This document shows positions 1,534 through 51,998 of a DNA stretch of 64,000 nucleotides, in pieces; the first letter of the stretch is position 1, and the number at the start of each line of letters is the position of its first letter. The DNA lies in NCBI RefSeq assembly GCF_023509825.1, contig NZ_JAKQXY010000002.1:1-64000 (forward strand). Reading direction: 5' to 3'. Under the pieces are notes generated by a model, which was given only the letters and a program-made list of their open reading frames with translations, had not been told where the DNA came from and ran no database searches. The DNA comes from Spiroplasma attinicola. GTDB taxonomy: Bacteria; Bacillota_I; Bacilli_A; Mycoplasmatales; VBWQ01. A program made the position numbers and the translations under genes.

Positions 1534-2934
1534 ATGTTAAAAAGAAAATATGGTTTATTAACAACAACAATGGTTGCCATCAGTGCAACATTAGGATCAT
1601 CAATTTTAATTTCTTTTGGTCAAGTTGCTTTTTATGCAAAGTTTAATCCAATTTTAATGTTATTAGCTTGGGCATTAGGTGGTTTGTTAATTATTCCTAG
1701 TTTATTAATTTTTGCTGAAACAACAGTTAGTTATCCAGAAAATGGTACGACTTATAATTGATTAAAAAAAGCAAATTATAAAGCATTTGCTTTTTGGTTT
1801 GGTTGAATTTTAGTTTTAATTGTTAGTGCCACAGCAATTGCTAGTATTACAATTGCTTGTAGTTCATTAATTGCTTCATTATTTAATATTACTAATCCAT
1901 GAATTATTAAAGCTATTGGTATTGGTTTAATGTTAGTAATTGGTTTATTCCATATTTTTTTAAAACAACTTGTTATTGTTTCTCAAACAATTTTTACATT
2001 TTTAAAACTTTTACCAATTCTTTTTATTATTGTTATTGCGATAATTTATGGTTCATTTAATAATTTCAAAAATCAGGGTGGTAGTAATTTAACAGAAACA
2101 TATGTATCGTCATATTTATTATTACCAGCAATTGCAATGACAATGTTTGCTTATTCAGGAGTAGAATCAGTTACTTATATTGCTGGTGAAATTAAAGAGC
2201 CGAAAAAAAATATTATTCGTGCCAAAATTTTAGCAACGATTGTTGTTATTGCTGTTTATTTAATTTTAGCTTTGTCATTCATTATTATTAATGTTAGTCA
2301 TGGTCTTGACTGAATGTCATCGACTTTTTGACAAGATGCGCTTAAAAATTTAAAACTTCCTTCTGGTTTAATTTTGGCTTTTAATATTTTTGTGATAATA
2401 ATTTTCTTTGGTTCTTTAAATTCTTTCTTCTTATATCATTCACGAATGGTTCATAAGTTAGCAGAAGAAAAAGATTTAGCACTAATTTTTGCTAAAGTAA
2501 GAAAGAGCAATGAATCACCTTATATGGCAATTATTTTATTAATTGTTTTAGCAGCAATTTATATTCTTTGAGATCAGTTATATAGTATTGTTACTTATTT
2601 TGTTATTGCTACCACAATTTTACAATTTATTTCAATTATTGTTGCTTGACAATTACGACATAAACGAAAAGATTATCAGAAAATTTTTAACGATTTTGTT
2701 TTTGGAATTATTTTTTTTAGCGTTTTAATTGCTGATATGCTCTTATTAGCCGGAGCAATTATTTCTGTTTATATTTCAGTAATTAATAATAATGATTGAT
2801 GAATCTTATGAAAATGTTTAATTGTTTGTGGTGTCTTATTAGCAGGTTATCCAATTTATTATTTGCGAACTTTTTGACGATGACTTCGCAATGATGAATC
2901 AAAAAAGAAACAAGTAAAGAATAAAAAAGAATAA
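1534..2934 (+). CDS. APC-type amino-acid permease
   Basis: A 466-aa, very hydrophobic protein with about 12 predicted membrane helices. The first helix carries the APC superfamily pattern with the unwound glycine region (ISATLGSSILISFG), and a later helix has AMTMFAYSGVESV followed by AGEIKEPKKN, typical of amino-acid/polyamine permeases. It would import an amino acid at the cell membrane; the substrate cannot be told. Several TGA codons are read as Trp (first at 1759). The ATG at 1534 has only a weak ribosome site (GGTGCGGAA just upstream). It stands alone, followed by hairpins at 2942-2953 and 2992-3017. Confidence 0.85.
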
Positions 2935-2941
2935 GATTAAT

Positions 2942-3020
2942 AGGGTGAACCCTAAAAAGTAAGTATTAAATAAAAAACACTTTTTAAAATTATTGCAAGA
3001 TGTTAAAGTCTTGCAATTTT
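2942..3020 (+). terminator. Terminator region after the permease
   Basis: A short stem (AGGGT-GA-ACCCT, 2942-2953) is followed by a stronger one (ATTGCAAGA with TCTTGCAAT, 2992-3017) and a T-rich tail. The second hairpin overlaps the 3' end of the broken transposase on the other strand. Confidence 0.6.
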
Positions 3021-3478
3021 ATTTTATTATATCAATCGTTTCAATCAACGACATCTAAAACATATTTTTTAATATTCAAATAATGGTTGCTATGAATTTT
3101 TCCCTTTTTCAAACTAATATGAAAACTTTCAATAACAGCATCTCTGTACAAGAATATACTTTTCCCATTGAGATAACAATGCCATTAGCAGTATAGAAAT
3201 TTTTATATATATTTGATGTGTATTGCCTACCGTGATCTGAATGGATAATTATTCCATTGCGATCATTTTTTGTTTTCTTAATTGCTGAATTTAAATTTTT
3301 CCATTACTAATTTTAAATCATTAAATTTTGAAATTTTAAAATCAATAATTTCTTTTTACTTCTAATTGAGATTTTTTGAATTTTTGCCCTTTTTAGCGAT
3401 AAAAAAGACCTTCATCTAGTAAGTTAATTTATACAAACTATTTTTTAATTTGTCCTTACTATTTGGAGGTCAGTCTAT
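2990..3478 (-). pseudogene. Decayed IS3/IS150-type transposase (OrfB) remnant
   Basis: Minus-strand translation gives the DDE integrase-core stretch IIIHSDHGRQYTS followed by NGIVISMGK. After a frameshift near 3150 it resumes as DAVIESFHISLKKGKIHS and ends DVVDWNDWYNKIK, the classic C-terminus of IS3-family OrfB. The front part (3300-3478) holds only fragments of OrfA-like sequence with stops and what looks like the element's outer end (TAGACTGACCTCC on the minus strand near 3476). The middle of the element is deleted, so it cannot transpose. Confidence 0.75.
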
Positions 3479-3496
3479 TAATCTTGTTCTTTTTTA

Positions 3497-4342
3497 TTAA
3501 TGAATTACTTTAAAGTCTTTAAAACCAGTTTGATTTGATGCTTCTTTATATGAATCAATATCTGCTTCTACTAGTTTTATTTTTGCTAAAGCATTTCTAA
3601 TTGCATCACTGCCAACAAAAATATGAGTTGGAATTGTTTTTTTGGTTGTTAAATCATAAATAAATTTTGCATAAGCTTTTGGATTTCCTAATTGCTGATG
3701 GTTAATAGCATTTCAATTTTTCTTATCAGTTTCAAAATTGTAATCACTAATTTTACTATCGGCATACTTAATTGATGTTGATTCTAAAAAGTTTGTTCTA
3801 AAGCCTCCAGGTAAAATTGATGAAACAGAAATATTAAAGTGTTTTAGTTCATCATTTAATCCTTCACTAAAGCCATCAAGGGCAAATTTAACAGCACTAT
3901 AAACACTAACATTAGCGAAACTACGATAACCAGCAACTGAAGATGTGTTAAAGATATGACCGTATTTTTGTTTACGAAGAATTGGTAATACGGATTTAAT
4001 AACATTGAAAGTATAAAAAACATTAACTTTAAATAAATTATTAATTTCTTCATCACTAATTTCTTCAAATGGTCCAATTAGTCCATAGCCAGCATTATTT
4101 AATACAATATCAATTGTATTAAATTTTTTAAGTGCTAAATTAATCTTTTCACTAATATCGCTAATTGAATTTAAATCAGGACTTAGTGCTAATAAATTTT
4201 TCACATCACCAATTTCTTTGGTAATAGTTTCAGGATTTCTTGAAAATGCGATAACATTATTACCTTGGCTAATTAAATATTTAACAGTTTCTAAGCCAAG
4301 TCCTTGACTGGCGCCTGTTATTAATCAAGTTTTATTTTTCAT
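3497..4342 (-). CDS. Short-chain dehydrogenase/reductase (SDR)
   Basis: A 281-aa classical SDR. The Rossmann motif TGASQGLG lies at the N-terminus, NNAG marks the middle of the fold, and the catalytic pattern Ser...YxxxK appears as NTSSVAGY then YSAVKFALDG. It would reduce or oxidise a small alcohol or carbonyl compound with NAD(P)H in the cytoplasm; the substrate is unknown. Start ATG at 4342 follows AAAGGAG. It begins 19 bp after the aldo/keto reductase stop, so the two form one leftward operon, probably under MerR-type control from 5368-5398. Confidence 0.88.
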
Positions 4343-4361
4343 TTTTTCTCCTTTGCTATTT

Positions 4362-5398
<1,037 letters not shown>

Positions 5399-5411
5399 GG
5401 AGAAATTAAAA

Positions 5412-5816
5412 ATGAAAAAATTATATTTAAATGAAATTGCAAAACGATTTAATCTTAGTGAAGCAACAATTAGATTTTACGATGAAAAAGGTTTAATGCC
5501 ATTTATAAAACGAGAAGCAAATGGTTATCGTTATTTAAATGAAATTGACTTACCATGAATTGAAGTGATTGTTTGTTTGAAGAAAACTGGTATGGCAATT
5601 AAAAATATTAAACAATATATTGATTTATGTATTAAAGGCGAAAGCACTGTTGCAACAAGACATTTAATGATTATTAATCAAAAAGCAGTTGTTGAAACTA
5701 AAATTATTGAATTACAAAATGAATTACAATTTTTAAAGGAAAAAGAACAATATTATCAGAAGTTAATAAGTAAAGAAGTAGGAATAAAAGATCATCCATA
5801 TTCTTATTCAAAATAA
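5412..5816 (+). CDS. MerR family transcriptional regulator (AdhR/NmlR-like)
   Basis: A 134-aa regulator. The N-terminal winged helix has the MerR pattern (LNEIAKRFNLSEATIRFYDE, then GYRYL), followed by a long dimerisation helix around residues 80-120. There is no metal-binding Cys cluster at the C-terminus, in line with the AdhR/NmlR branch that responds to aldehydes or electrophiles. ATG 5412 is preceded by AAGGAG. It is divergent from the reductase operon and probably controls it through the 19-bp spacer promoter. One TGA (near 5559) is Trp. Confidence 0.88.
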
Positions 5817-5847
5817 TTTTTAAGTGAAAGGTATTAGAGTTGTTAAT

Positions 5848-8800
5848 ATGAGCAATAAATTAAAAGATAAAGGGTATTATGATTTATTATTAAAATCAAC
5901 CGATGAAATTGATGATAATTATTTAATCAAAAATCTGGAACAAGAAGTTAATAATATTAATGACATTAATAAATATTTAGGACAACAATTTAATCATTTA
6001 TTAATTAATCATTTAACAACAATTAATAATCTTGATGATAAAGTTAATTTCATTAATAATTTATTAACAAATTTTAGTAGTAAACAATTTCGGAAAGATA
6101 TTTTATTGCAAGTTAAAGATCAAACGAAAAGCAACGAATATCAAAGTCAAATTCGTTTGAGTGATAATTATTTATTTACCAATCAAGAAGAACAAAAATT
6201 AATAGAACAATTAAATAAAGAAATTATTACTAGTGATGCTGTAGCATTTGTTTATCCTTTTATTTCTAAAACAATGATTAATAAATTACGAGGTGCTTTT
6301 AATTTTGCTTTAAAGTATCAGATTCCAATTACTTTAATTACAACAACTTTTGATCATCAAGCATTATTTGTTAATTTATATGAATTAGAACGATTAATTA
6401 AACAATATGCTAATATTAAAATTCGGATTGAAGATAACACTGAAATTAGAAGTGAAAGAATTCATATTAAAGCAGCAATTTTTACTCGTACTTCTGGTTT
6501 TTCTTCAGTTATTATTGGTTCTAGTAATTTAACAATGCCTGGAATGAGTTCGGGAAGAGAATGAAATATTAGAATTAATGAATTTAATAATCAAGGTTTA
6601 TATCAAAGGATTAATCAGGAATATCAAAAATTATGAAATGATAATTTAATTGATTTTAATAATGAACAAGCAAGAAAACAATTATTAGCAAGAATTGAAA
6701 ATCAAAATCAAATCTTTAATCCAAGTATTAATCAAAGTAATTTTTTTAATTATTTATTATATGACTTTCAACTTGCCATTTTAGAAAAATTAGTTTTTCG
6801 GAGAAGAATTAAGAAAAATAAACATTTAATTATTATGGCAACGGGAACAGGCAAAACAGTTATTAGTGCTTTTGATTATTTACAACAAATTAAAAATCAT
6901 CAAGGAAGAAAACCAAGATTATTATTTTTAGCCCATCAAAAAGAAATTATTGAGCAAGCATTAAATACTTTTCGTAATGTTTTAAAAGATAAAACCTTTG
7001 GTCAAATTTTAAATGTTAAAACTGAAAACTTTAATTATGATTATTTATTTGCAACAATTCAAACAGTTTATCGGCATTTAAAAAAGTTTAATCGAAAACA
7101 ATTTGACTTAATTATTTTTGATGAAGCACATCATATTGCAGCTGATACTTTTGATCAAGTTTTTAAATATTTTCAACCACAAGAGATAATTGGTTTAACA
7201 GCAACTCCAGAACGAGAAGATAATAAAAGTATCTTACCTTATTTTGATAATGAATTTGCTTATGAATTACGATTGTGAGATGCAATTGATCAAAGATTAT
7301 TAGCAAAATTTGATTATTATTGTATTGATGATATTAATAGTAATTTAATTGGCATTGATTTGAATAATGATCAACAAGTATTTAAAGTTTTAAATAATGA
7401 TGCAAGAAATAAATTATTATTAGATGTGATTAATAATTATATTGGTTTTTATCATCAGCCATTAACTTTAGTATTTTGTATTAATACCGTTCATGCTGAA
7501 ATTATTAGTAACTATTTACAAGCACAAGGATTAAAAGCAAATTATTTAACTAGCAAAGTTAGTCATTTACGAAATAAAATTTTAAATGATTTTCGAAAAA
7601 GAACGATTAATTATTTATGTGTTGTTAATATTTTTAATGAAGGAATTGATGTTCCTGAAATTGATACGATTATTTTATTACGACCAACAAATTCAAAAAC
7701 AATTTTCTTACAACAATTAGGTCGTGGTTTACGAAAAACAATTAATAAAAATAAATTGGTTGTTTATGATTTAATTGCTAATATTGATCAAAAATATGAT
7801 ATTACGATTGGTATTAAAAATTTATATCATAATCAAGCAACTTTAAATCAAAAAGCACTCTTTGAGCAAGGTTTTAGTTTACCTAATGGTTGTACTTTGA
7901 ATTTAGAAGCGCGCAGTAAAGAAATTATTTTAAAGAATTTACAAGCTTGATATCAAGTACCAAAAAGAATGCATCAAGTAGTTAGGGAATATTATCAAAA
8001 ATATCAAAATGAAGGTTTGGCAAAAATTATTAATGATTATGACTTGAATCTAATTTTGTTTTATCATTACTTGGATGATTTTTATTTAAGAGTAGCAATG
8101 TCAATTAATCGCTATCAAGAGCAAGAAAATCAAACATTGCGTAATAAAAATATTTTAAAACAATTTTTATTTTTAAATGATTATCAAATTATTAATTATT
8201 TTTACTTACGATTACAAAATGATTTAACAAAATTTGTTGTTGATGATTATTATGATAATTTATTATTTTGTTCTTTATTTTATGAAGTTACTAGTTTAAA
8301 AGTTTTTCGTTCACTTATTAGTGATGAAGATAATTTAATTGCAAACTTTATTAATCACCATCAATTAATTGTTCAAGAGTTATTAATTATTCTTGCTTAT
8401 AAATTACAATATGAAACTTTGCTTGTTCAAGAACAAAAGATAACTAATTATCCTTTACTTGCAATTAAAGCAACATATACAGTAAGGCAAGCATTAGCTG
8501 CAATTGGTCGCTTAAATTTCATTAAGAATTTAGATTCATTAAAAATTATTGCCTTTCAAGCAGGTTATTTAACTTATGATCAAGATAAGTCAGTAGTTTT
8601 TGCTGATTTAGATGGCAGTAATTATGGTAAATTAACTAGATATGATGAAGCAAAGCAAGAATTTTATTGATCGGTACCGGAATCAAAGAATATTAATAGT
8701 AAATGAGTTAAGGATTTAGAAAATCAAACAATTGTTAAGTTTTTGTTTTTAAATGAACCAATTAATAAGAACTATCCTAACTTATCATTAAAACTTTATA

Positions 8801-8892
8801 ACTTCGTTGGAATTGGTAAATATCTTGCTACTTTATCTGATAAATACTTAACAATTAAATTAAAAGTTAAAAAAGAGATTACTAAAGATTAA
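5848..8892 (+). CDS. PLD-domain superfamily II helicase (DUF3427-type)
   Basis: A protein of about 1014 aa. The N-terminal third has a phospholipase D-like site: HIKAAIFTR (His206) with SSNLT downstream. The helicase core follows: Walker A TGTGKT (about 332-337), DEAH (425-428), motif III GLTATPERED and motif VI QLGRGLRKT (about 623). The C-terminal third resembles the alpha-helical DUF3427 tail. This layout is known from putative nuclease-helicases of unclear role in DNA repair or defence. The start is uncertain: ATG 5848 was chosen; an in-frame GTG lies at 5824 without a clear ribosome site. Several TGA codons are Trp. Confidence 0.8.
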
Positions 8893-8989
8893 TATTTCTT
8901 TTTGTCTTAAAAAAGTTTTAAAAAATACTATTATTTTTTTTAAAATAGATATATAATTTACTGGTATGTAATTTCAAGGAGGAAGAAAT

Positions 8990-9292
8990 ATGGCTGTACC
9001 AGCAAGACGAACTTCAAAAATGCGTAAAAATACTCGTCGTAGTCACGATGCTTTAATTTCTCGTACAACAGCTAATTGTCCTAATTGTGGTTCAGTAGTT
9101 TTACCTCATCATGCTTGCATGAAATGCAATACTTATAAAGGTGTAAATATTCCCACAAGTAAAAAAACTACAGTATTAGCAGAAACTAAAGATGCTAAAG
9201 TAAAAGGTAGTTCTGATAAAAAAGCAAAAAGTCCTAAAAAGGATAAAAAAGAAGATAAAAAGCAAGTTGTTAATCAAGCAACTAAAGAGTAA
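8990..9292 (+). CDS. rpmF: Ribosomal protein L32 with a long charged tail
   Basis: The first 57 residues are standard bacterial L32: MAVPARRTSK start, and a zinc ribbon formed by CPNC and CMKC. The protein continues for about 43 more residues rich in Lys, Asp and Glu, making 100 aa against about 57-60 usually. Strong ribosome site AAGGAGG; a TATAAT box lies at 8952-8957. It is monocistronic with a hairpin terminator at 9306-9340, just upstream of the rRNA operon. Confidence 0.93.
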   Translation: MAVPARRTSKMRKNTRRSHDALISRTTANCPNCGSVVLPHHACMKCNTYKGVNIPTSKKTTVLAETKDAKVKGSSDKKAKSPKKDKKEDKKQVVNQATKE

Positions 9293-9305
9293 ATTTCAAT
9301 TAATT

Positions 9306-9342
9306 AATGCATTTTCTTTGCAAAAAGGAAGTGCATTTTTAA
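9306..9342 (+). terminator. Terminator of rpmF
   Basis: A hairpin built from AATGCA (9306-9311) and TGCATT (9332-9337), extended inward by partial pairing of TTTTC with GGAA, is followed by a T run. Confidence 0.6.
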
Positions 9343-9399
9343 TACAATTTTAAAGATAAAAAAAGGTTAAAAAAAATAATTATTTTTTTCTTATTTTTG

Positions 9400-9428
9400 T
9401 TGACTTTGTTTCTGCTTTTCGGTAATAT
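9400..9428 (+). promoter_or_regulatory. rRNA operon promoter
   Basis: TTGACT (9400-9405), 17-bp spacer, TAATAT (9423-9428). Transcription would start near 9436. A BoxA-like sequence, ATCTTTGAAAACT, follows at about 9482-9494 and recurs in the 16S-23S spacer. Confidence 0.75.
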
Positions 9429-9553
9429 TCCTATTGTGACTTAAAAAGGTTGCAAATCTAAAAAATTTACAAAATAGAACGATCTTTGAAAACTAAATAG
9501 AACAAGAATTAATCCGTCAATTAAGTCAGAAGATAACTTAAATTAACATATTT

Positions 9554-11075
<1,522 letters not shown>

Positions 11076-11290
11076 TATGGAGAATTGTCTTTTAATTAAG
11101 ACATCAATCAATGTAGAAATTTAACCTTGATTTAATAAAGTACGGATTATTAAAAAAGTTCTTTGTTCTATTTAGTTTTCAGAGATTGTTTTGTTTCTGA
11201 AAATTGTAATTGTTCTTTAAAAACTAGATAAAGTAGACATCAAAATTTTAATCAAATTTTTTATAAATTATCTTGCAATAGGATTATTCT
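11076..11290 (+). other. 16S-23S spacer without tRNA
   Basis: About 215 bp of AT-rich spacer. No cloverleaf or T-loop sequence is visible. A BoxA-like antitermination motif (TGTTCTTTAAAAACT) occurs near 11210-11226, matching the one ahead of 16S. Confidence 0.7.
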
Positions 11291-14214
<2,924 letters not shown>

Positions 14215-14289
14215 AGAGAAATTGCGCTATTGTAACTAATTTATAGTGATGTCTACATCTAGTTTTTAGAGAATAATTACCAAATATTT

Positions 14290-14573: not shown

Positions 14574-15686
14574 ATGAATAAAATTTTACTGTGTGGTAAT
14601 GGTATTAATATTGAATTTAATAAAGAATTTTGTTTTAAAAATTTTATTGATATTTTAACTAATGAAGAAAAATTATTAGAATTAATTAATGAAATTTTAG
14701 AAAAACTTGAATATAAGGAATTTGATTCTTTTAAAGAAGATTTTTTAGAGATATTTGATAAATGTAAGAGTAGTATTATAAATTTAGATCAAGAATCTAA
14801 ATTTAATGGAGTTGAGATAGCAGTATCAGCCTTTAAAAGATCAGTAAAAGCTTTAATTTTTCAATCTCCTTTAAATATAAAAAATGAAAATTTAAATAAA
14901 TTTGAACATTTTTTTGATTTGTTATTTTTTTATTTTTTAGCTAACTTACAAAAGAAAAGCAAAATTAATTTACTTAAAAATTCTAAATGAAATATTAATT
15001 TTAAAAAGTATTTAAAAGAAAAAGAATATCAATATATTTATACTTTAAATTATGATTCACTTTTAACAACTATATATAAGGAAAGTTATATTTGACATGT
15101 ACATGGTAAATTAAAATTTGAAAATAATAAATTAGATTACAAAGGATGCGTTTTTGAAAGTTATTTGAATCCTAAATGAAATAGTTTAAGAAAGACGACT
15201 TTACCGATTTTTTTAGATATGAATGAATTAAAAGGAGAATATAATTTAGATGTTGTAGGATTAAATTCAAAAAATGATGAAGAAATTTTTATTTTTTTTA
15301 TTTTCTCTCAAATTTGTAAAACTATAACTTATTATTTTCATAATGAAAATGATTTAAAAAATTTTCATGAATTTCTTGAAATGATTGCAAATTGAAATGA
15401 AGAATCTGAAGGCATTGAATTAATTAAAGAAAAAGATTTTTTAAAAATTAATTTGAATGAAGATTATCCTGATTATAATAAAAAAATTGAAATTACTGAA
15501 GATCAAGCAAAATTAAATTATAATATTAAATTTCTTGAAAGAACTAATCCATCTTCAGAAAATTGAAAAATTGTACATAAATTGAAAATTAAATTAAGAG
15601 AATCAAAGGATTTTTGGGATGAAGTTAATAAAAAAGAAATAATACTTATAGATAATAAAGAAGAATTACAAAATGAAAAAGGATAA
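14574..15686 (+). CDS. SIR2-like domain protein, probable defence gene
   Basis: A 370-aa protein with landmarks of the SIR2-like superfamily: CGNGIN at residues 7-12 for nucleotide binding, YTLNYDSLL at 156-164, and HVHGK at 175-179 where sirtuins have the catalytic His. A later VVGLNSKNDEEIF resembles the Gly-x-Ser-x-Asp end of stand-alone bacterial SIR2 domains. Related proteins hydrolyse NAD+ during phage infection, and AbiH is a similar family; which one this is cannot be settled here. GAGGT precedes ATG 14574. It sits between the rRNA operon and proC, 18 bp ahead of proC, so the two may be co-transcribed. Confidence 0.65.
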
Positions 15687-17629: not shown

Positions 17630-17643
17630 AATTAAATTTCATT

Positions 17644-17690
17644 AAAAATCAATTTTTAATTTAAATTAAAAATTGATTTTTCTTTTTCCC
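17644..17690 (+). terminator. Palindromic terminator
   Basis: A perfect 38-bp palindrome (17644-17681, each arm 19 bases starting AAAAATCAATTT) followed by CTTTTTC. It closes the Fic/Doc pair. Confidence 0.8.
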
Positions 17691-17767
17691 TTATATTTTT
17701 AAAATATTTTTTATGTTAAAATTTAAATGACTTTCTTGGGAATATATAAAGAATTAGGAAAAATAAG

Positions 17768-19591
17768 GTGAAAGTTTTGAATTGAAGAAATATAAGATTA
17801 CTTCCAGTTAACCCTAGATTTACATTAATGGAAGATTTAGATTGAAAGAAAATTGGAAATAATAAAGAAAAAAATTATACTAATTATAATTTAATAGATA
17901 ATATATGTCATTTATTAAATTTTGAAGATGATTTTTCTGATTTTTTAGAATTATTAAATTCAATTATAGAAAATGGTTGAGATAAATATTCAAAGATTTT
18001 TATTATTAAAGGTCAAGATGGTTACTTTTATTGTGTAGAAGGAAATAGAAGATTAATGGTATTAAATTTAATTTCTGATTTTTCTTCTTTTAATAAAGTA
18101 GATCAAGACAAAATTGAAAAAGCATTTAAAGATGAAAAATTATCTTTTAATAAAATGAAGAAAATTATAAAAGCATTTAAAAATGATATTCCTACTGATA
18201 TAAGTATAGAATTTTTAGATTTACCAAAAAATGAAGATGAAGTTATTGAAATTTGACGTACAATAAATTCAAAGCATGTGGGTGAAGAAATTGGTAAACG
18301 AGGTCATTCAAGATTTAAATATTTTTATGATTTAATGCATTATGCAGAAAAATTACAAAAAGAAAATAATACTTATGATCAAATTGTACAAAAATGTTCC
18401 TTAATTTTTAATAAAAAGAAAGAAATTATTCAATTAGATCTTAAAAATGGAATATGAATAATGTATGTGACAGAAATTTATAATAAATCTACTAATAAAA
18501 CAAAGATTCAAGATAAAATTGATTTTACAAATATGAAAATTTCTAGTTTGGAATTATTACCGACTCAAAATATTAAATTTAATGATAATAATGAGAGAAT
18601 TTCAAATATTTTAAATTTATATTGAGATTCACAAAATTTAAAATTAATAATAAAAAACCAAGAAATTAATCAAGAAGAAGTTTTAATTTTTTTGGTAAAT
18701 CAATGTCTGAAAAAAATGATTACTACTCGAGGTATTAAGCCAGAACTTTATGATGATTTGTCTAGTTTATTTTATAAAGAAGTCTTTAAGACAGAAAACC
18801 ACAAAGATTACATTAAAAAATTAAAACAACAAAAAACAAAAACAAAAACTGAAAAACAAGAAATTGAAATTACTGATAATATTAAAGAAATTCAAAAAAT
18901 GTCTTTAAAAATTAATTTTAATAATAAAGATAATAATTTAATTTGATCTATTAAATATTTATGAAAATATGATTTAGTTACTTTAGATGCTTTAAGCATA
19001 ATAGATAAAAATGGTTATCCTTATTCCACTTTGTCTCTTATTTTAAGAACAACAATTGAAAATTTTCTTTTGTTATTAATTTATATGGATGAATTTGCAT
19101 ATAAATATATTTATAATCTTTATCAAAATTTAAATAATGAGAACATGTTTAAAATATGAGATAAATATAATTCTGTTATTAATAATAGAAATGATTTTGG
19201 TTTGGCGGAACCATTAGTAAAAAGTAATTATAAGTTATTAGTAAAGAAAATTGATTCATGTAATTCCAAAGTAAATAAAAATTTAAAAACACTTTTAAGG
19301 ATATTTTTGAAAAATAAATTTTTAAATTGAAAAGATATTTCGAAAATATTGGAAAACTCTCCAAATATAACTCAAAAATATAATTCTAAAATTTTGGATA
19401 GTATAAATAGTTTATTACCTACATTACAAAAGGAATTATTTGATGAAAATTTATTTGCAATTTTAAATAAGTTAGTTCATACTCCTCATTACTTAAGAAG
19501 TAATAAAAATGAAATTATAGATGCTTGTGCAAGAACGTTTGGCTTGATTAAAGAAGTATTAAAATTTTTTAGTATAATAATAATTGAATAA
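17768..19591 (+). CDS. ParB-like domain protein in a DNA-modification cluster
   Basis: About 607 aa. The N-terminus has the ParB/Srx fold landmarks LLPVNPRF (11-18) and EGNRRLMVL (91-99), the conserved pocket of ParB-like nuclease/CTPase domains. The long remainder is Lys/Asn-rich, helical, and not recognised. It stands first in a four-gene run with two DNA methyltransferases and a B3-like protein, so it may be the nuclease or regulator of a modification-based defence system. The start is uncertain: GTG 17768, or TTG 17777 with AAGGTG as ribosome site. Many TGA Trp codons. Confidence 0.6.
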
Positions 19592-19618
19592 TAAAAATTT
19601 AAAAAAAGAGGTAAAATA

Positions 19619-20833
19619 ATGAAATTGGATACAAACATAGTAATTTATAGGGATTTTCAAACTGGTAAAAATTTAGAATTGCCAAAAGAAGATACTTGAA
19701 AAGAGCATAACCGACTTTGAGGTGATCAAATGCATCGTATTTGTTCTTATGTAGCTATGTTCTCTCCAAGTTTGGCTAGTTTTTTTCTTAAAACATATAG
19801 TGACAAGAATGATGTTGTATTAGATACATTTTCTGGAAGAGGTACTACTCTTTTAGAAGCAAGATTGTTAGATCGTAAATGTTATGCTATAGATTTAAAT
19901 CCATTTGCATATGTTTTGTCTCGTGCAAAATCTCAAAGTTTTAAAATTGAAGATGTTTTAAAAAGAATTAATTATTGAGAAAAAAAGTATTTTTCAAATA
20001 ATAATATTATTTATGATTTTGATAATACTTATGATGATTTAAAAGTTTATTATAGTGAGAAAAATTTACATCAATTAGTTTTTATTAAGAAAAATTTAGG
20101 AATAAGATTTAAAAAAATATCAACTCTTGATAATTTTATTTTGGCTATAACGTTAGGTATTATGCATGGACCTATGAGAAAAAGTGGAAAGTCAATATAT
20201 TTTTCATTAAGTATGAGTAATCATACTTCAATGTCAGTTAATTATGTTAGAAATTATGCTGTAAAACATAATCTTAAGAAACCTGATGATGATAATATAT
20301 TTGAGAAAATAAAAAATCGTGCAATTTATATTTTAAAAAAATCAAAATATTCTAATAATATTGCTCAAGTAAAATTAGGAAATGCTTTAGAAATAAATAA
20401 ATATTTTGATATTAAACCAAAATTAATTTTTACTTCACCACCTTATTTAAATTTAATTAATTATACAAAACAAAATTGAATTAAAATGTGAATGTTGGGT
20501 TTTAATAATAATCAAGATAACAATAATATTAAATTAGATGATCGTCATAATTTTTTAAGTTATAAAATTTTTATGACTAATTATTTATTAGAAATTGCAA
20601 AAATTTGTAATAATGATACTACAGTTATTTTAGTAATTGGTGATGCTAATAATAAAAGAATACATAATTATTTTGAATTAATGTGAGATGAAATTAAAAA
20701 AGTTGTTCCTTTTAGATTAAAAGAAACATATGCTGATTCTATTATTCAAGAAAAAAAAGCTACTAATTCTTTAGGCACAAAAGCAGGCAGAGCAACTAGA
20801 GTAGATAGGATGTATATTTTTAAATTAAAATAA
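19619..20833 (+). CDS. DNA methyltransferase with TSPPY motif (m4C type)
   Basis: A 404-aa methylase. S-adenosylmethionine motif I is DTFSGRGTT (residues 69-77), the cofactor acidic residue lies in YAIDLNP (89-95), and catalytic motif IV is TSPPY (272-276). SPPY is typical of N4-cytosine methylases, though some N6-adenine enzymes share it. The middle stretch (SNHTSMSVNYVRNY) belongs to a recurring methylase subfamily. GAGGT precedes ATG 19619; only 27 bp separate it from the ParB-like gene. It would modify one strand or one site of the system's target. Confidence 0.85.
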
Positions 20834-20893
20834 TTAACTTTAATATTTTCTATATAATTAGATTATTAAATATCACAGAAAGGATTGTTTAGA

Positions 20894-21862
20894 ATGAAAA
20901 AATATAAGGTTTTAAGCCTTTTTGCTGGGATTGGTGGAATTGATTTAGGTTTTAAAAAAGTTAATGTAGATTCAATTTTAGCAAATGATATTGACAAGTT
21001 TTGTAAAATTACTTTTTCTGAAAATTTTCCCAATACTGAATTTATTCTTGATGATATAACTAATTTAAAAATAGAACAATTACCTAATTTTGATATTTTA
21101 GCTGGTGGTTTTCCATGTCAACCTTTTTCTGTAGCTGGTAAAAGAAAAGGATTTAATGATGATAGAGGAAATTTATTTTTTCAAGTGACAAAAATAATAT
21201 ATGAATTAGTTAAGATAAACAGAAAACCAGAAGTAGTTTTTTTAGAAAATGTAAAAAATTTATATACTCATGATTTTGGAAAAACTTATAAAATAATTAA
21301 AGAAGAGTTAAAAAAATTAGATTATGAAGTTACAGAAAAAATATTAAATACCTGTGAATATGGTAATATTCCGCAAAATAGAGAAAGACTATTTATAATA
21401 GCGTTTTCTTCAAAAAAAGCTTTTAATAAGTTTCAATGACCTGAAAAAATACCATTAACAAATACAATAAATAAATTAATAGATTGAAATAAAGAAGTTC
21501 CTTCGCAATACTATTATTCAGAAAAGAGTAAAGTTTTTAACTTATTAAAAGAAAATGTAGTTAAAAATAATGCTATATATCAATATAGACGTGTTTATGT
21601 TAGAGAAAATAAATCAGGTTTATCACCTACTCTAACAGCTAATATGGGTATGGGAGGACATAATATACCTATAATAAAAGATAATTTTGAAAGAATAAGA
21701 AAGTTAACACCAGAAGAATGTTTATTATTACAAGGATTTCCAAAAAATTATATAATTCCAGAAAATTTAAGTAATTCAACTATATATAAACAAATTGGAA
21801 ATTCTGTTTCGGTTACTGTTATTGAACGTATAGCAGAAAATATAATTAAAGCTTTAAATTAA
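20894..21862 (+). CDS. DNA (cytosine-5-)-methyltransferase
   Basis: A 322-aa m5C methylase with all main motifs: SLFAGIGGIDLG (motif I), GGFPCQPFS with nucleophile Cys75 (IV), FLENV (VI), PQNRERLF (VIII) and QIGNSV (X). The target-recognition region reads YRRVYVRENKSGLSPTLTAN, a style I associate from memory with enzymes of GC-rich targets such as the NgoAVII group. ATG 20894 follows AGAAAGGA; a TTG at 20885 is too close to that site. It probably protects DNA together with the m4C enzyme upstream. Confidence 0.92.
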
Positions 21863-21909
21863 AAAATGCATTGTACTTTAGATGATTATTAAAATAGTGA
21901 GGTTCAACG

Positions 21910-22416
21910 ATGGAAAAAGAAGATAACAAAATGCAGAAAATAATTTTACCTTTATATTCTTATAAAAAAGGAAAAGAAAAAATTATTAATAAAAAAAGTG
22001 GCTTAAATCAGTGAAATGCAAAGGGTAGGTTAAGACATAATGATGAAGTTTATATACCTTTTCCTTCTGAACTTAGAGAAAAATTTAAAAATTTTTTTCC
22101 TGACAGAAAATATCCATTTAAAGTTAAGTTACCTAATGGAGAAATTTTAAATATGAAAGTATGTCAACAAGGAGGAAAAGCAATAATGTCTAATCCTAAT
22201 AAAGATTTAGGTAAGTGGATATTAAGAGATGTTTTGAAAATTCCTGAAAAAAAGGTAGTGAAATATAAAGATTTATTAGAAATAGGAATTGATAGTGTTG
22301 TCTTTGAAAAATTTGATAATTTTTACAAATTAGACTTTCAAAAAATTGGTTCATATGAATTTTTTATACAAAATTTTGTTTTAGATGATTATAATGATTT
22401 AAATAAAGATTTTTAG
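21910..22416 (+). CDS. B3-like DNA-binding domain protein (NgoFVII/BfiI-type C-domain)
   Basis: A 168-aa protein that resembles only the C-terminal DNA-recognition domain of NgoFVII-family (PLD-type) restriction enzymes: SGLNQWNAKGRLRHNDEVYI, FFPDRKYPFKVKLPNG, and KAIMSNPNKDLGKWILR. In R.NgoAVII and R.BfiI this fold (B3-like) reads the target, while a separate N-terminal PLD domain cuts. The cutting domain is absent here. Strong coupling to the m5C methylase (48 bp gap) suggests a recognition subunit or the remnant of a restriction enzyme. Confidence 0.65.
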
Positions 22417-22448
22417 TTTAAAAATATATAAAAATTAACTAAAAGATA

Positions 22449-22477
22449 TTGTATTTTACTCTAATTTATAATATAAT
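22449..22477 (+). promoter_or_regulatory. Promoter of the rplJ leader
   Basis: TTGTAT (22449-22454), exactly 17 bp, TATAAT (22472-22477). It sits right ahead of the L10 leader. Confidence 0.75.
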
Positions 22478-43799: not shown

Positions 43800-43814
43800 G
43801 ACTTTACAACTAAA

Positions 43815-44098
43815 AAATGAAAGTTTAGATGTTCGGGAAAAAGATGAAAATTCTTTGCTGTCCCAGCAACTGTAATGCTGATGAATGTTGAATTACCCAT
43901 TGAAACATTGTTTTGAGAAGGGCAACTAGTAAAAAGACGCTAAGCCAGTAGACCGGTCTAATTTTTCAGAAATAATCATTATTCCTGGGGGTGAATATTT
44001 AATTATTAAGTAATTTTATGATTTTTTTGTCGTAAAAAATTATAAAAAAGCAAAATAATTATTATCTTTAATGCCCCAATTAACTTGGGCATTTTTTA
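43815..44098 (+). promoter_or_regulatory. Cobalamin (AdoCbl) riboswitch before nrdFIE
   Basis: The leader carries the conserved aptamer blocks in order: TTCGGGAA (43832), GCTGTCCCAGCAACTGTAATG (43858; here split as GCTGTCCCAGC and AACTGTAATG), ACCCATTG ... GAGAAGGGCAAC, and the B12 box AAGCCAGTAGACCGGTC (43942; consensus AAGCCAGGAGACCTGCC). A hairpin terminator (AATGCCC with GGGCATT then TTTTTT, 44069-44096) follows before nrdF, so ligand binding could stop transcription. In other bacteria this class represses B12-independent enzymes or transport. Confidence 0.82.
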
Positions 44099-51744: not shown

Positions 51745-51769
51745 TAAGGTAGATAAAATAATCGAATAT

Positions 51770-51998
51770 TTTTATTCTGTTAGGTGAGGCTACTTTACGG
51801 ATATATGCTGCTACCCACTTTTGTCTAAAGACAAAAAAATGGGTGAACAACTTTTGTCGAATTAAGGCTTAAGTTAATGTAGCTGACTTATACTTTTAAG
51901 TCAAAGTTGTAAAGTGCTAAAGCTCAACGCGGTGAATAAATTCTTTTTAATTGTGAATAGGATTTATTTTTTCCGTAAATAAATCTTTTTTTATTTTT
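51770..51998 (+). promoter_or_regulatory. M-box (ykoK) magnesium riboswitch
   Basis: The leader shows the conserved M-box segments: GTTAGGTGAGGCTAC (51779), CTGCTACCCA, ATGGGTGAACAAC, GAATTAAGGC, and GTGCTAAAGCTCAACGCGG. A hairpin terminator (GATTTATTT with AAATAAATC then a T run, 51961-51996) follows. High Mg2+ would favour termination. It sits ahead of a Mg2+-type P-ATPase, the expected target. Confidence 0.92.

What the first reader, a model, noticed from the sequence alone, without database searches (positions are those of the whole stretch)
17768..22416. ParB-like protein, m4C and m5C methylases and a lone B3 domain: modification system without a visible nuclease
Four tightly spaced same-strand genes. 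Two methylases of different chemistry suggest an asymmetric target or a system like NgoAVII. The B3 protein corresponds only to the recognition half of PLD-type restriction enzymes, and the ParB-like protein takes the place where a nuclease is expected. This could be a new restriction architecture with a ParB-fold effector.
Basis: partly seen in the sequence, partly recalled or inferred. Interest (0 to 1): 0.78.

Follow-up and report, generated by a model that had tools for sequence, protein, structure and literature searches.

The report
ParB-methylase pair beside decayed restriction system
The four genes are two neighbouring units: a complete two-gene, phage-defence-like pair (a ParB-fold protein and a DNA methylase) and an ordinary restriction system whose cutting domain is gone, so it is not one new four-gene restriction system, although the pair is a new variant of a known phage-defence type.

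Summary
The four genes are real (17768-22416, code 4, TGA=Trp), but they are two units, not one system. Unit 1 is a 607-aa protein with an N-terminal ParB/sulfiredoxin-fold domain plus an N4/N6-class methylase. The pair recurs alone: 15 of 18 same-order genomes with a ParB-protein hit have the methylase beside it, and 24 of 29 genomes with the methylase have the ParB protein beside it. Its N-domain is homologous to PD-Lambda-5_A, a validated E. coli prophage defence protein, but PD-Lambda-5 uses a D12 (Dam-like) methylase: 55 of 63 distinct viral homologues sit with D12 and 0 with this class. So unit 1 is a methylase-swapped variant that probably works like PD-Lambda-5. Unit 2 is an m5C methylase plus a B3 domain, the remnant of a type II system: 17 full-length relatives carry ~220 residues in front of B3 with invariant E/D/K/E, modelled as PD-(D/E)XK, not PLD. 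That domain is absent from this genome. The B3 remnant keeps 25 of 25 invariant B3 residues. The locus is a variable restriction slot: the same place in a congener holds an m5C/HNH and a Z1-helicase set. A ParB-fold effector for unit 1 is plausible but unproven.

The parts
17768..19591 (+). ParB-fold protein (PD-Lambda-5_A-like), 607 aa, GTG start, 10 TGA=Trp; proposed sensor/effector of unit 1
   Evidence: PADLOC PD-Lambda-5_A 3.3e-6; profile-profile N-domain 98.9% / 1.2e-17 with a PD-Lambda-5_A set
17768..18307 (+). ParB/sulfiredoxin-fold NTP-binding-like domain (about residues 1-180); NPR and EGNRR boxes invariant in 17 of 17 homologues
   Evidence: Model pLDDT 55-91 per ten-residue block over 1-160; ParB 7o0n Z 9.3, rmsd 2.2, 93 aligned; sulfiredoxin 6ky4 Z 7.7; conservation
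18038..18052 (+). EGNRR box (residues 91-95), ParB Box-II/phosphate-motif-like
   Evidence: Invariant 17 of 17; role of the Box-II arginine as in PMC12704722 (passages)
19019..19588 (+). C-terminal helical region (residues 418-607) with conserved R427 and N567-x3-H571; HEPN-like is a guess
   Evidence: 16/17, 15/17, 16/17; pLDDT 39-81 per block; no Pfam HEPN hit at E<=10
19619..20833 (+). N4/N6-class DNA methylase (SPPY; probable m4C), 404 aa; modification half of unit 1
   Evidence: PF01555 1.8e-14; MTase_II PDLC03325 6.4e-30; next to a ParB-fold protein in 24 of 29 genomes
20885..21862 (+). C-5 cytosine DNA methylase, 325 aa; full length, now orphan; unit 2
   Evidence: PF00145 6.1e-85; homologue in 16 of 18 B3 loci and 3 of 3 same-order loci
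21910..22416 (+). Lone B3 DNA-recognition domain, 168 aa: C-terminal part of a PD-(D/E)XK-B3 restriction enzyme whose first ~220 residues are missing
   Evidence: REase_II PDLC03479 positions 230-375 of 376, 7.2e-41; alignment with 17 full-length relatives; 25/25 invariant residues kept
17634..22468 (.). Variable slot between fic and the rplJ leader; holds other restriction genes in a congener
   Evidence: Similarity to G002 stops at 17633 and resumes at 22469; to G001 it resumes at 22429; contents of L178

Best explanation
Two units share a restriction slot. Unit 1 (ParB-fold protein + N4/N6 methylase) is a self-contained defence pair that works like PD-Lambda-5: the methylase marks a short motif in the cell's own DNA; the ParB-fold protein uses its N-terminal NTP-binding domain to load on or sense DNA that lacks the mark (or to sense failure of marking), and its fast-evolving C-terminal part delivers the block, by cutting DNA or by shutting the cell down. 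Unit 2 (m5C methylase + B3) is a type II system of the m5C + PD-(D/E)XK-B3 kind that lost its nuclease domain by a deletion of about 220 codons; the methylase is now orphan and the B3 domain is left with its own start codon. Shown: gene content, pairing, homology of the ParB domain, methylase swap, absence of the nuclease half, variable slot. Inferred: all steps of unit 1's action, and that the lost domain was an active nuclease.
For: Unit 1: PD-Lambda-5_A match 3.3e-6 and profile match 98.9% / 1.2e-17, 99.3% / 6.1e-21 for the N-domain alone. Pairing both ways: 15 of 18 same-order genomes and 24 of 29, with either gene order and different neighbours. PD-Lambda-5 proper: 55 of 63 distinct viral A proteins with a D12 methylase, 0 with this class; PD-Lambda-5_B absent from this genome. 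The methylase is more conserved than the ParB protein in 78 of 78 genome pairs, as for a fast-evolving effector. PD-Lambda-5 defends in E. coli (PMC9519451, section 7 read). Unit 2: 17 full-length relatives with E49, D69, K80 and E93 17 of 17; model pLDDT 89.1, N-domain resembling 3ndh Z 9.0, HinP1I 2fkc Z 7.4, EcoRV about 6, and B3 resembling R.NgoAVII Z 16; N-domain absent from this genome (with 3 of 3 positive controls).
Against: No function was tested. The C-terminal region of the ParB protein shows no significant homology to PD-Lambda-5_A (hhalign probability 4%), so the effector part may differ. Whole-model confidence is low (pLDDT 60.4). Two full-length methylases (G244, G298) lack a ParB protein beside them, and G231 and G423 have the ParB protein without the methylase. 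G071 holds both a ParB protein and an intact B3 enzyme on separate short contigs, so linkage there cannot be seen. The tight spacing of all four genes would also fit one operon. Perfect B3 conservation (25 of 25) could mean the lone B3 is still used.
Confidence: 0.62

Rival explanations
1. The ParB-fold protein is not an effector but a helper or regulator of methylation (as DpdB or DndB are thought to be), and the pair is a modification or regulatory system.
For: DpdB and DndB are ParB-superfamily proteins of DNA-modification systems (PMC12839542 and PMC10853773, passages). No nuclease domain was recognised in P0001.
Against: The partner methylase differs in class between the mollicute and PD-Lambda-5 lineages, which suits an effector better than a dedicated methylase helper. 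PD-Lambda-5 gives phage defence. The ParB protein evolves faster than the methylase.
Confidence: 0.2
2. One four-gene system: B3 gives specificity, the two methylases protect an asymmetric site, and the ParB-fold protein cuts.
For: Tight same-strand spacing; B3 perfectly conserved.
Against: The halves are separate in every other locus looked at: 18 + 3 B3 loci and the loci of 18 same-order genomes with the ParB protein. B3 relatives sit with m5C and their own nuclease domain.
Confidence: 0.06
3. The B3 protein recruits the PLD-helicase protein at 5824-8892 in trans, a split NgoAVII-like enzyme.
For: That protein carries the only RE_NgoFVII PLD match in this genome; NgoAVII needs a PLD-B3 protein plus a helicase-like ATPase (PMC4267653, abstract and section 22).
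Against: The PLD-helicase is found near full length in congeners and family members without any B3 match, and the three same-order genomes with intact B3 enzymes show only short weak helicase matches.
Confidence: 0.04
4. Unit 1 is also inactive and the whole slot is decaying.
For: Its neighbour has lost its nuclease; a decayed copy of unit 1 exists in G093.
Against: Both unit 1 ORFs are full length with the invariant motifs kept.
Confidence: 0.08

Closest known systems
PD-Lambda-5 (two-gene prophage defence system, PMC9519451)
   Same: Two genes, ParB-fold N-domain protein plus a DNA methylase; N-domain homologous; similar LNxxVH-like element near the C-terminus.
   Different: Methylase is of the N4/N6 SPPY class instead of D12/Dam-like; C-terminal half not alignable with significance; found in mollicute-type genomes, with no match to P0001 in phage or plasmid records.
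HEPN MAE_28990-type operons with a ParB nuclease and DNA methylase gene (PMC3710099, table passage)
   Same: ParB-fold protein and methylase coupled, proposed restriction plus cell-shutdown logic.
   Different: No separate HEPN gene seen here and no recognised HEPN domain.
R.NgoAVII / CglI (PLD-B3 protein plus helicase-like ATPase)
   Same: B3 domain (Pfam RE_NgoFVII_C; relatives' B3 Z 16 to 4rd5).
   Different: Relatives of the window's B3 carry a PD-(D/E)XK-like N-domain, not PLD; no ATPase partner gene in the unit.
EcoRII and UbaLAI (B3 plus PD-(D/E)XK type II enzymes)
   Same: B3 joined to a PD-(D/E)XK nuclease (recalled); the UbaLAI B3 domain appears at Z 5.4.
   Different: Domain order is reversed here, nuclease first and B3 last (order in EcoRII/UbaLAI recalled, no call).

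Membership tests
PD-Lambda-5 | A protein with the PD-Lambda-5_A ParB-fold N-domain | tested here: met
   hmmscan 3.3e-6; hhalign 98.9%, 1.2e-17
PD-Lambda-5 | Homology to PD-Lambda-5_A over the C-terminal half | tested here: inconclusive
   hhalign of C-terminal parts probability 4%; only a short LNxxVHxP-like element in common
PD-Lambda-5 | PD-Lambda-5_B, a D12-class methylase, next to A | tested here: not met
   PDLC04018 has no match in this genome; the partner is N4/N6 class
PD-Lambda-5 | Protects against phage | not testable with these tools
   Shown for the E. coli system in PMC9519451 only
NgoAVII/CglI-type restriction enzyme | B3 domain of the R.NgoAVII kind | tested here: met
   RE_NgoFVII_C 2.3e-11 for P0004; relatives' model Z 16
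NgoAVII/CglI-type restriction enzyme | PLD nuclease domain on the same protein | tested here: not met
   Absent in P0004; PF09565 does not match 4 scanned full-length relatives, whose N-domain models as PD-(D/E)XK-like
m5C + PD-(D/E)XK-B3 type II restriction-modification | m5C methylase beside the B3 gene | tested here: met
   the same in 16 of 18 and 3 of 3 related loci
m5C + PD-(D/E)XK-B3 type II restriction-modification | N-terminal nuclease domain with E49, D69, K80, E93 | tested here: not met
   P0004 begins after it; no match in this genome, 3 of 3 controls found
HEPN ribonuclease | Recognisable HEPN domain in the C-terminal region | tested here: inconclusive
   No HEPN family among hits at E<=10 for 10 C-terminal parts; R427 and N567-x3-H571 conserved; low model confidence

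The most novel reading that the evidence does not exclude
A ParB-fold protein alone is the restriction effector of a two-gene methylase-guided system, the same effector family having been re-partnered with methylases of different chemistry (D12 class in phages, N4/N6 class in mollicutes), and in this genome the nuclease-less B3 protein is kept as a working DNA-recognition or shielding factor beside it.
Probability: 0.12. Interest if true: 0.8.

Novelty: new variant of a known kind. Interest (0 to 1): 0.5.

Why it matters
If unit 1 restricts, it shows that the effector of PD-Lambda-5-like systems does not depend on one kind of methyl mark, so a ParB-type NTP switch can tell self from non-self through different methylases. 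That makes an open question (how PD-Lambda-5 acts and what its ParB domain does) testable by swapping partners. The second unit corrects a likely misreading: these B3 enzymes are PD-(D/E)XK, not PLD, and the window holds a decayed copy.

Tried and rejected
P0001 against solved structures by sequence: nothing; family profiles: nothing. P0001 by tblastn in phages and plasmids: no match. P0002 and alignment A1 in viral contigs: nothing. Pfam on the 10 A proteins: only chance-level hits. HEPN in the C-terminal part: no hit; no HEPN entry among the VIA rows, which excludes nothing. PLD half elsewhere in the genome: only the PLD-helicase at 5824-8892, rejected as partner by co-occurrence. A published methylome that would name unit 1's motif: the M. 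agalactiae m4C methylase MAGa4250 is listed there as Bsp6I-type with its own REase; I did not compare it by sequence (passages of PMC9465063). Print searches on ParB-methylase pairs; nothing describing the mollicute pair was seen in the listings or the passages read. Papers seen: PMC9519451 (section 7 and passages), PMC4267653 (abstract, section 22), PMC12704722 (abstract and passages), PMC3710099, PMC3506569, PMC10853773, PMC12839542, PMC10799925, PMC10952713, PMC9465063, PMC12824646, PMC10673309 (passages only).
Full report
Observation. Read with TGA as tryptophan, the window holds four tight same-strand genes at exactly the stated coordinates. Under table 11 they appear broken. Searches give: no family for the 607-aa protein except PD-Lambda-5_A in PADLOC (3.3e-6, residues 58-159); an N4/N6-class methylase; a C-5 cytosine methylase; and a B3 domain (Pfam RE_NgoFVII_C 2.3e-11). 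PADLOC places the last on positions 230-375 of a 376-position restriction-enzyme model (7.2e-41), so it is the C-terminal part of something larger.

Unit 2, the m5C methylase and B3. A scan of genome contigs with the B3 protein gave 18 related loci, by their record titles from Treponema, Bacilli, Campylobacterota, Alistipes, archaea and others. In 16 of 18 an m5C methylase homologue lies in the locus. A search of 298 related genomes found 3 more, all 374-394 aa and beside an m5C methylase. Aligning the 17 full-length proteins (14 of the 18 and 3 of the 3; L008, L020, L022 and L023 were left out as broken or cut by a contig end) shows the window protein starting in the linker, after about 220 residues. 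By tblastn the four left-out loci still hold DNA for part or all of that domain (from residue 121 or earlier, by the L012 query); the window shows only the B3 part. A search of the window's whole genome with the N-domain of L038 found nothing; the same search found it in 3 of 3 genomes that carry the enzyme, one of them the query's own source. G000 is held in 4 contigs at about 94% completeness, so absence from the assembly is not quite absence from the cell.

What was lost. The Pfam PLD model of NgoFVII did not match the 4 full-length relatives scanned, while a separate PADLOC restriction-enzyme model matched the N-halves of the 2 scanned (8.5e-26 and 1.8e-24). A model of the Treponema relative (15-row alignment, mean pLDDT 89.1) resembles the R.NgoAVII B3 domain in its C-part (4rd5 Z 16.3, 134 aligned) and PD-(D/E)XK restriction enzymes in its N-part (3ndh Z 9.0, rmsd 5.6, 176 aligned; HinP1I Z 7.4; SwaI, DpnI and EcoRV about 6; the fold class of these enzymes is recalled). 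Z values under 8 alone would be weak; the agreement of many restriction enzymes, and E49, D69, K80 and E93 in 17 of 17, make PD-(D/E)XK likely. The B3 remnant keeps 25 of 25 residues invariant in the 17 relatives and 18 of 19 nearly invariant ones; the deletion is either recent or the B3 domain is still used.

Unit 1, the ParB-fold protein and the methylase. Among 99 related genomes 5 (the window's own included) had a homologue of the ParB protein, each with the methylase homologue beside it. With a 10-row profile, 22 of 392 phylum genomes matched; 18 are of the same order, and 15 of these 18 have the methylase next door (one pair decayed, G093); G071 (contig end), G231 and G423 do not. From the other side, 29 of 298 genomes have the methylase at E<=1e-15, 24 of them with a ParB-protein hit in the same short locus (one only at 5e-4); G244 and G298 have a full-length methylase without it, and G004, G374 and G071 hold fragments. 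The profile used was built from some of the same genomes. Order and neighbours vary (either gene first, divergent in G064, housekeeping genes around), and no nuclease gene recurs beside the pair.

Relation to PD-Lambda-5. The profile matches PD-Lambda-5_A proteins over the first ~200 residues at 98.9% and 1.2e-17 (N-parts alone 99.3%, 6.1e-21). The C-terminal parts do not match (4%), though many end in an LNxxVH-like element. In viral contigs all 19 loci carry a D12 methylase homologue; over both scans (80 loci) there are 63 distinct A proteins, 55 with a D12 methylase in the locus, 0 with a homologue of P0002 and 8 with neither. In class-level relatives G222 and G252 the partner is D12 too. 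PD-Lambda-5_B is absent from the window's genome. So the mollicute pair is a variant with a methylase of another class; I do not file it as PD-Lambda-5 because its defining B gene was tested and not met.

Structure and likely action. The P0001 model is weak overall (pLDDT 60.4) but most of the N-terminal 160 residues are fair to good and resemble CTP-bound ParB relatives (7o0n Z 9.3, rmsd 2.2, 93 aligned), Noc, KorB and sulfiredoxin. The EGNRR box is invariant in 17 of 17. ParB-fold proteins bind CTP, ATP or GTP, and the Box-II arginine is needed (PMC12704722, passages). The C-terminal helical part is unassigned. The ParB protein diverges faster than its methylase in 78 of 78 pairs of 13 genomes; against congener G001 the methylase is 77% identical and the ParB protein 34%. 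This fits an effector under pressure. PD-Lambda-5 was selected for phage defence in E. coli, and its authors call it a compacted restriction-plus-abortive system (PMC9519451). Hence the proposal: the methylase marks self, the ParB-fold protein responds to lack of the mark. Whether it cuts DNA or stops the cell is not decided.

The slot. Similarity to congener G002 breaks off at 17633, after fic, and resumes at 22469 in the L10 leader; G002 holds there an m5C methylase with an HNH protein, and a HATPase/Z1-helicase set; in G001 the genes upstream of rplJ match none of the window's. The four genes are thus cargo of a variable restriction site, which explains why two unrelated units lie side by side.

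Prior print. ParB nuclease and methylase genes in one operon with a HEPN protein are in PMC3710099 (table passage). I found no description of the mollicute pair in the searches; the library is open-licence papers only.

Noticed in passing
window 5824-8892: 1022-aa protein with PLD and SF2 helicase domains (SauUSI-like by recall), near full length in congeners and many order members; independent of B3.
   Followed up: partly
L178 (G002:C6) 2239-9639: Same slot in a congener: m5C methylase + HNH protein, and HATPase + Z1 helicase + 346-aa protein.
   Followed up: partly
L165 (G423:C1) 5948-12310: A ParB-family protein beside a 980-aa GmrSD_N-domain protein and an m5C methylase, without the N4/N6 methylase.
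   Followed up: no
L055, L057, L058, L060, L061, L062, L064, L065, L070: Viral three-gene form: A protein of 370-386 aa, a 339-340-aa protein, and a convergent D12 methylase; the middle protein of L061 has no Pfam hit.
   Followed up: partly
window 14574-15686: 370-aa protein between the rRNA operon and proC with no family hit at useful E.
   Followed up: no
L042 (G044) 11526-14243: PLD-helicase homologue directly downstream of that genome's ParB-methylase pair.
   Followed up: partly
L022 9338-10444 and L023 9350-10360: B3-enzyme genes that were split in table 11 ORF calling but align in one frame when TGA is read as sense.
   Followed up: no
window 43810-43975 and 51769-51942: Cobalamin and M-box riboswitches.
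   Followed up: no
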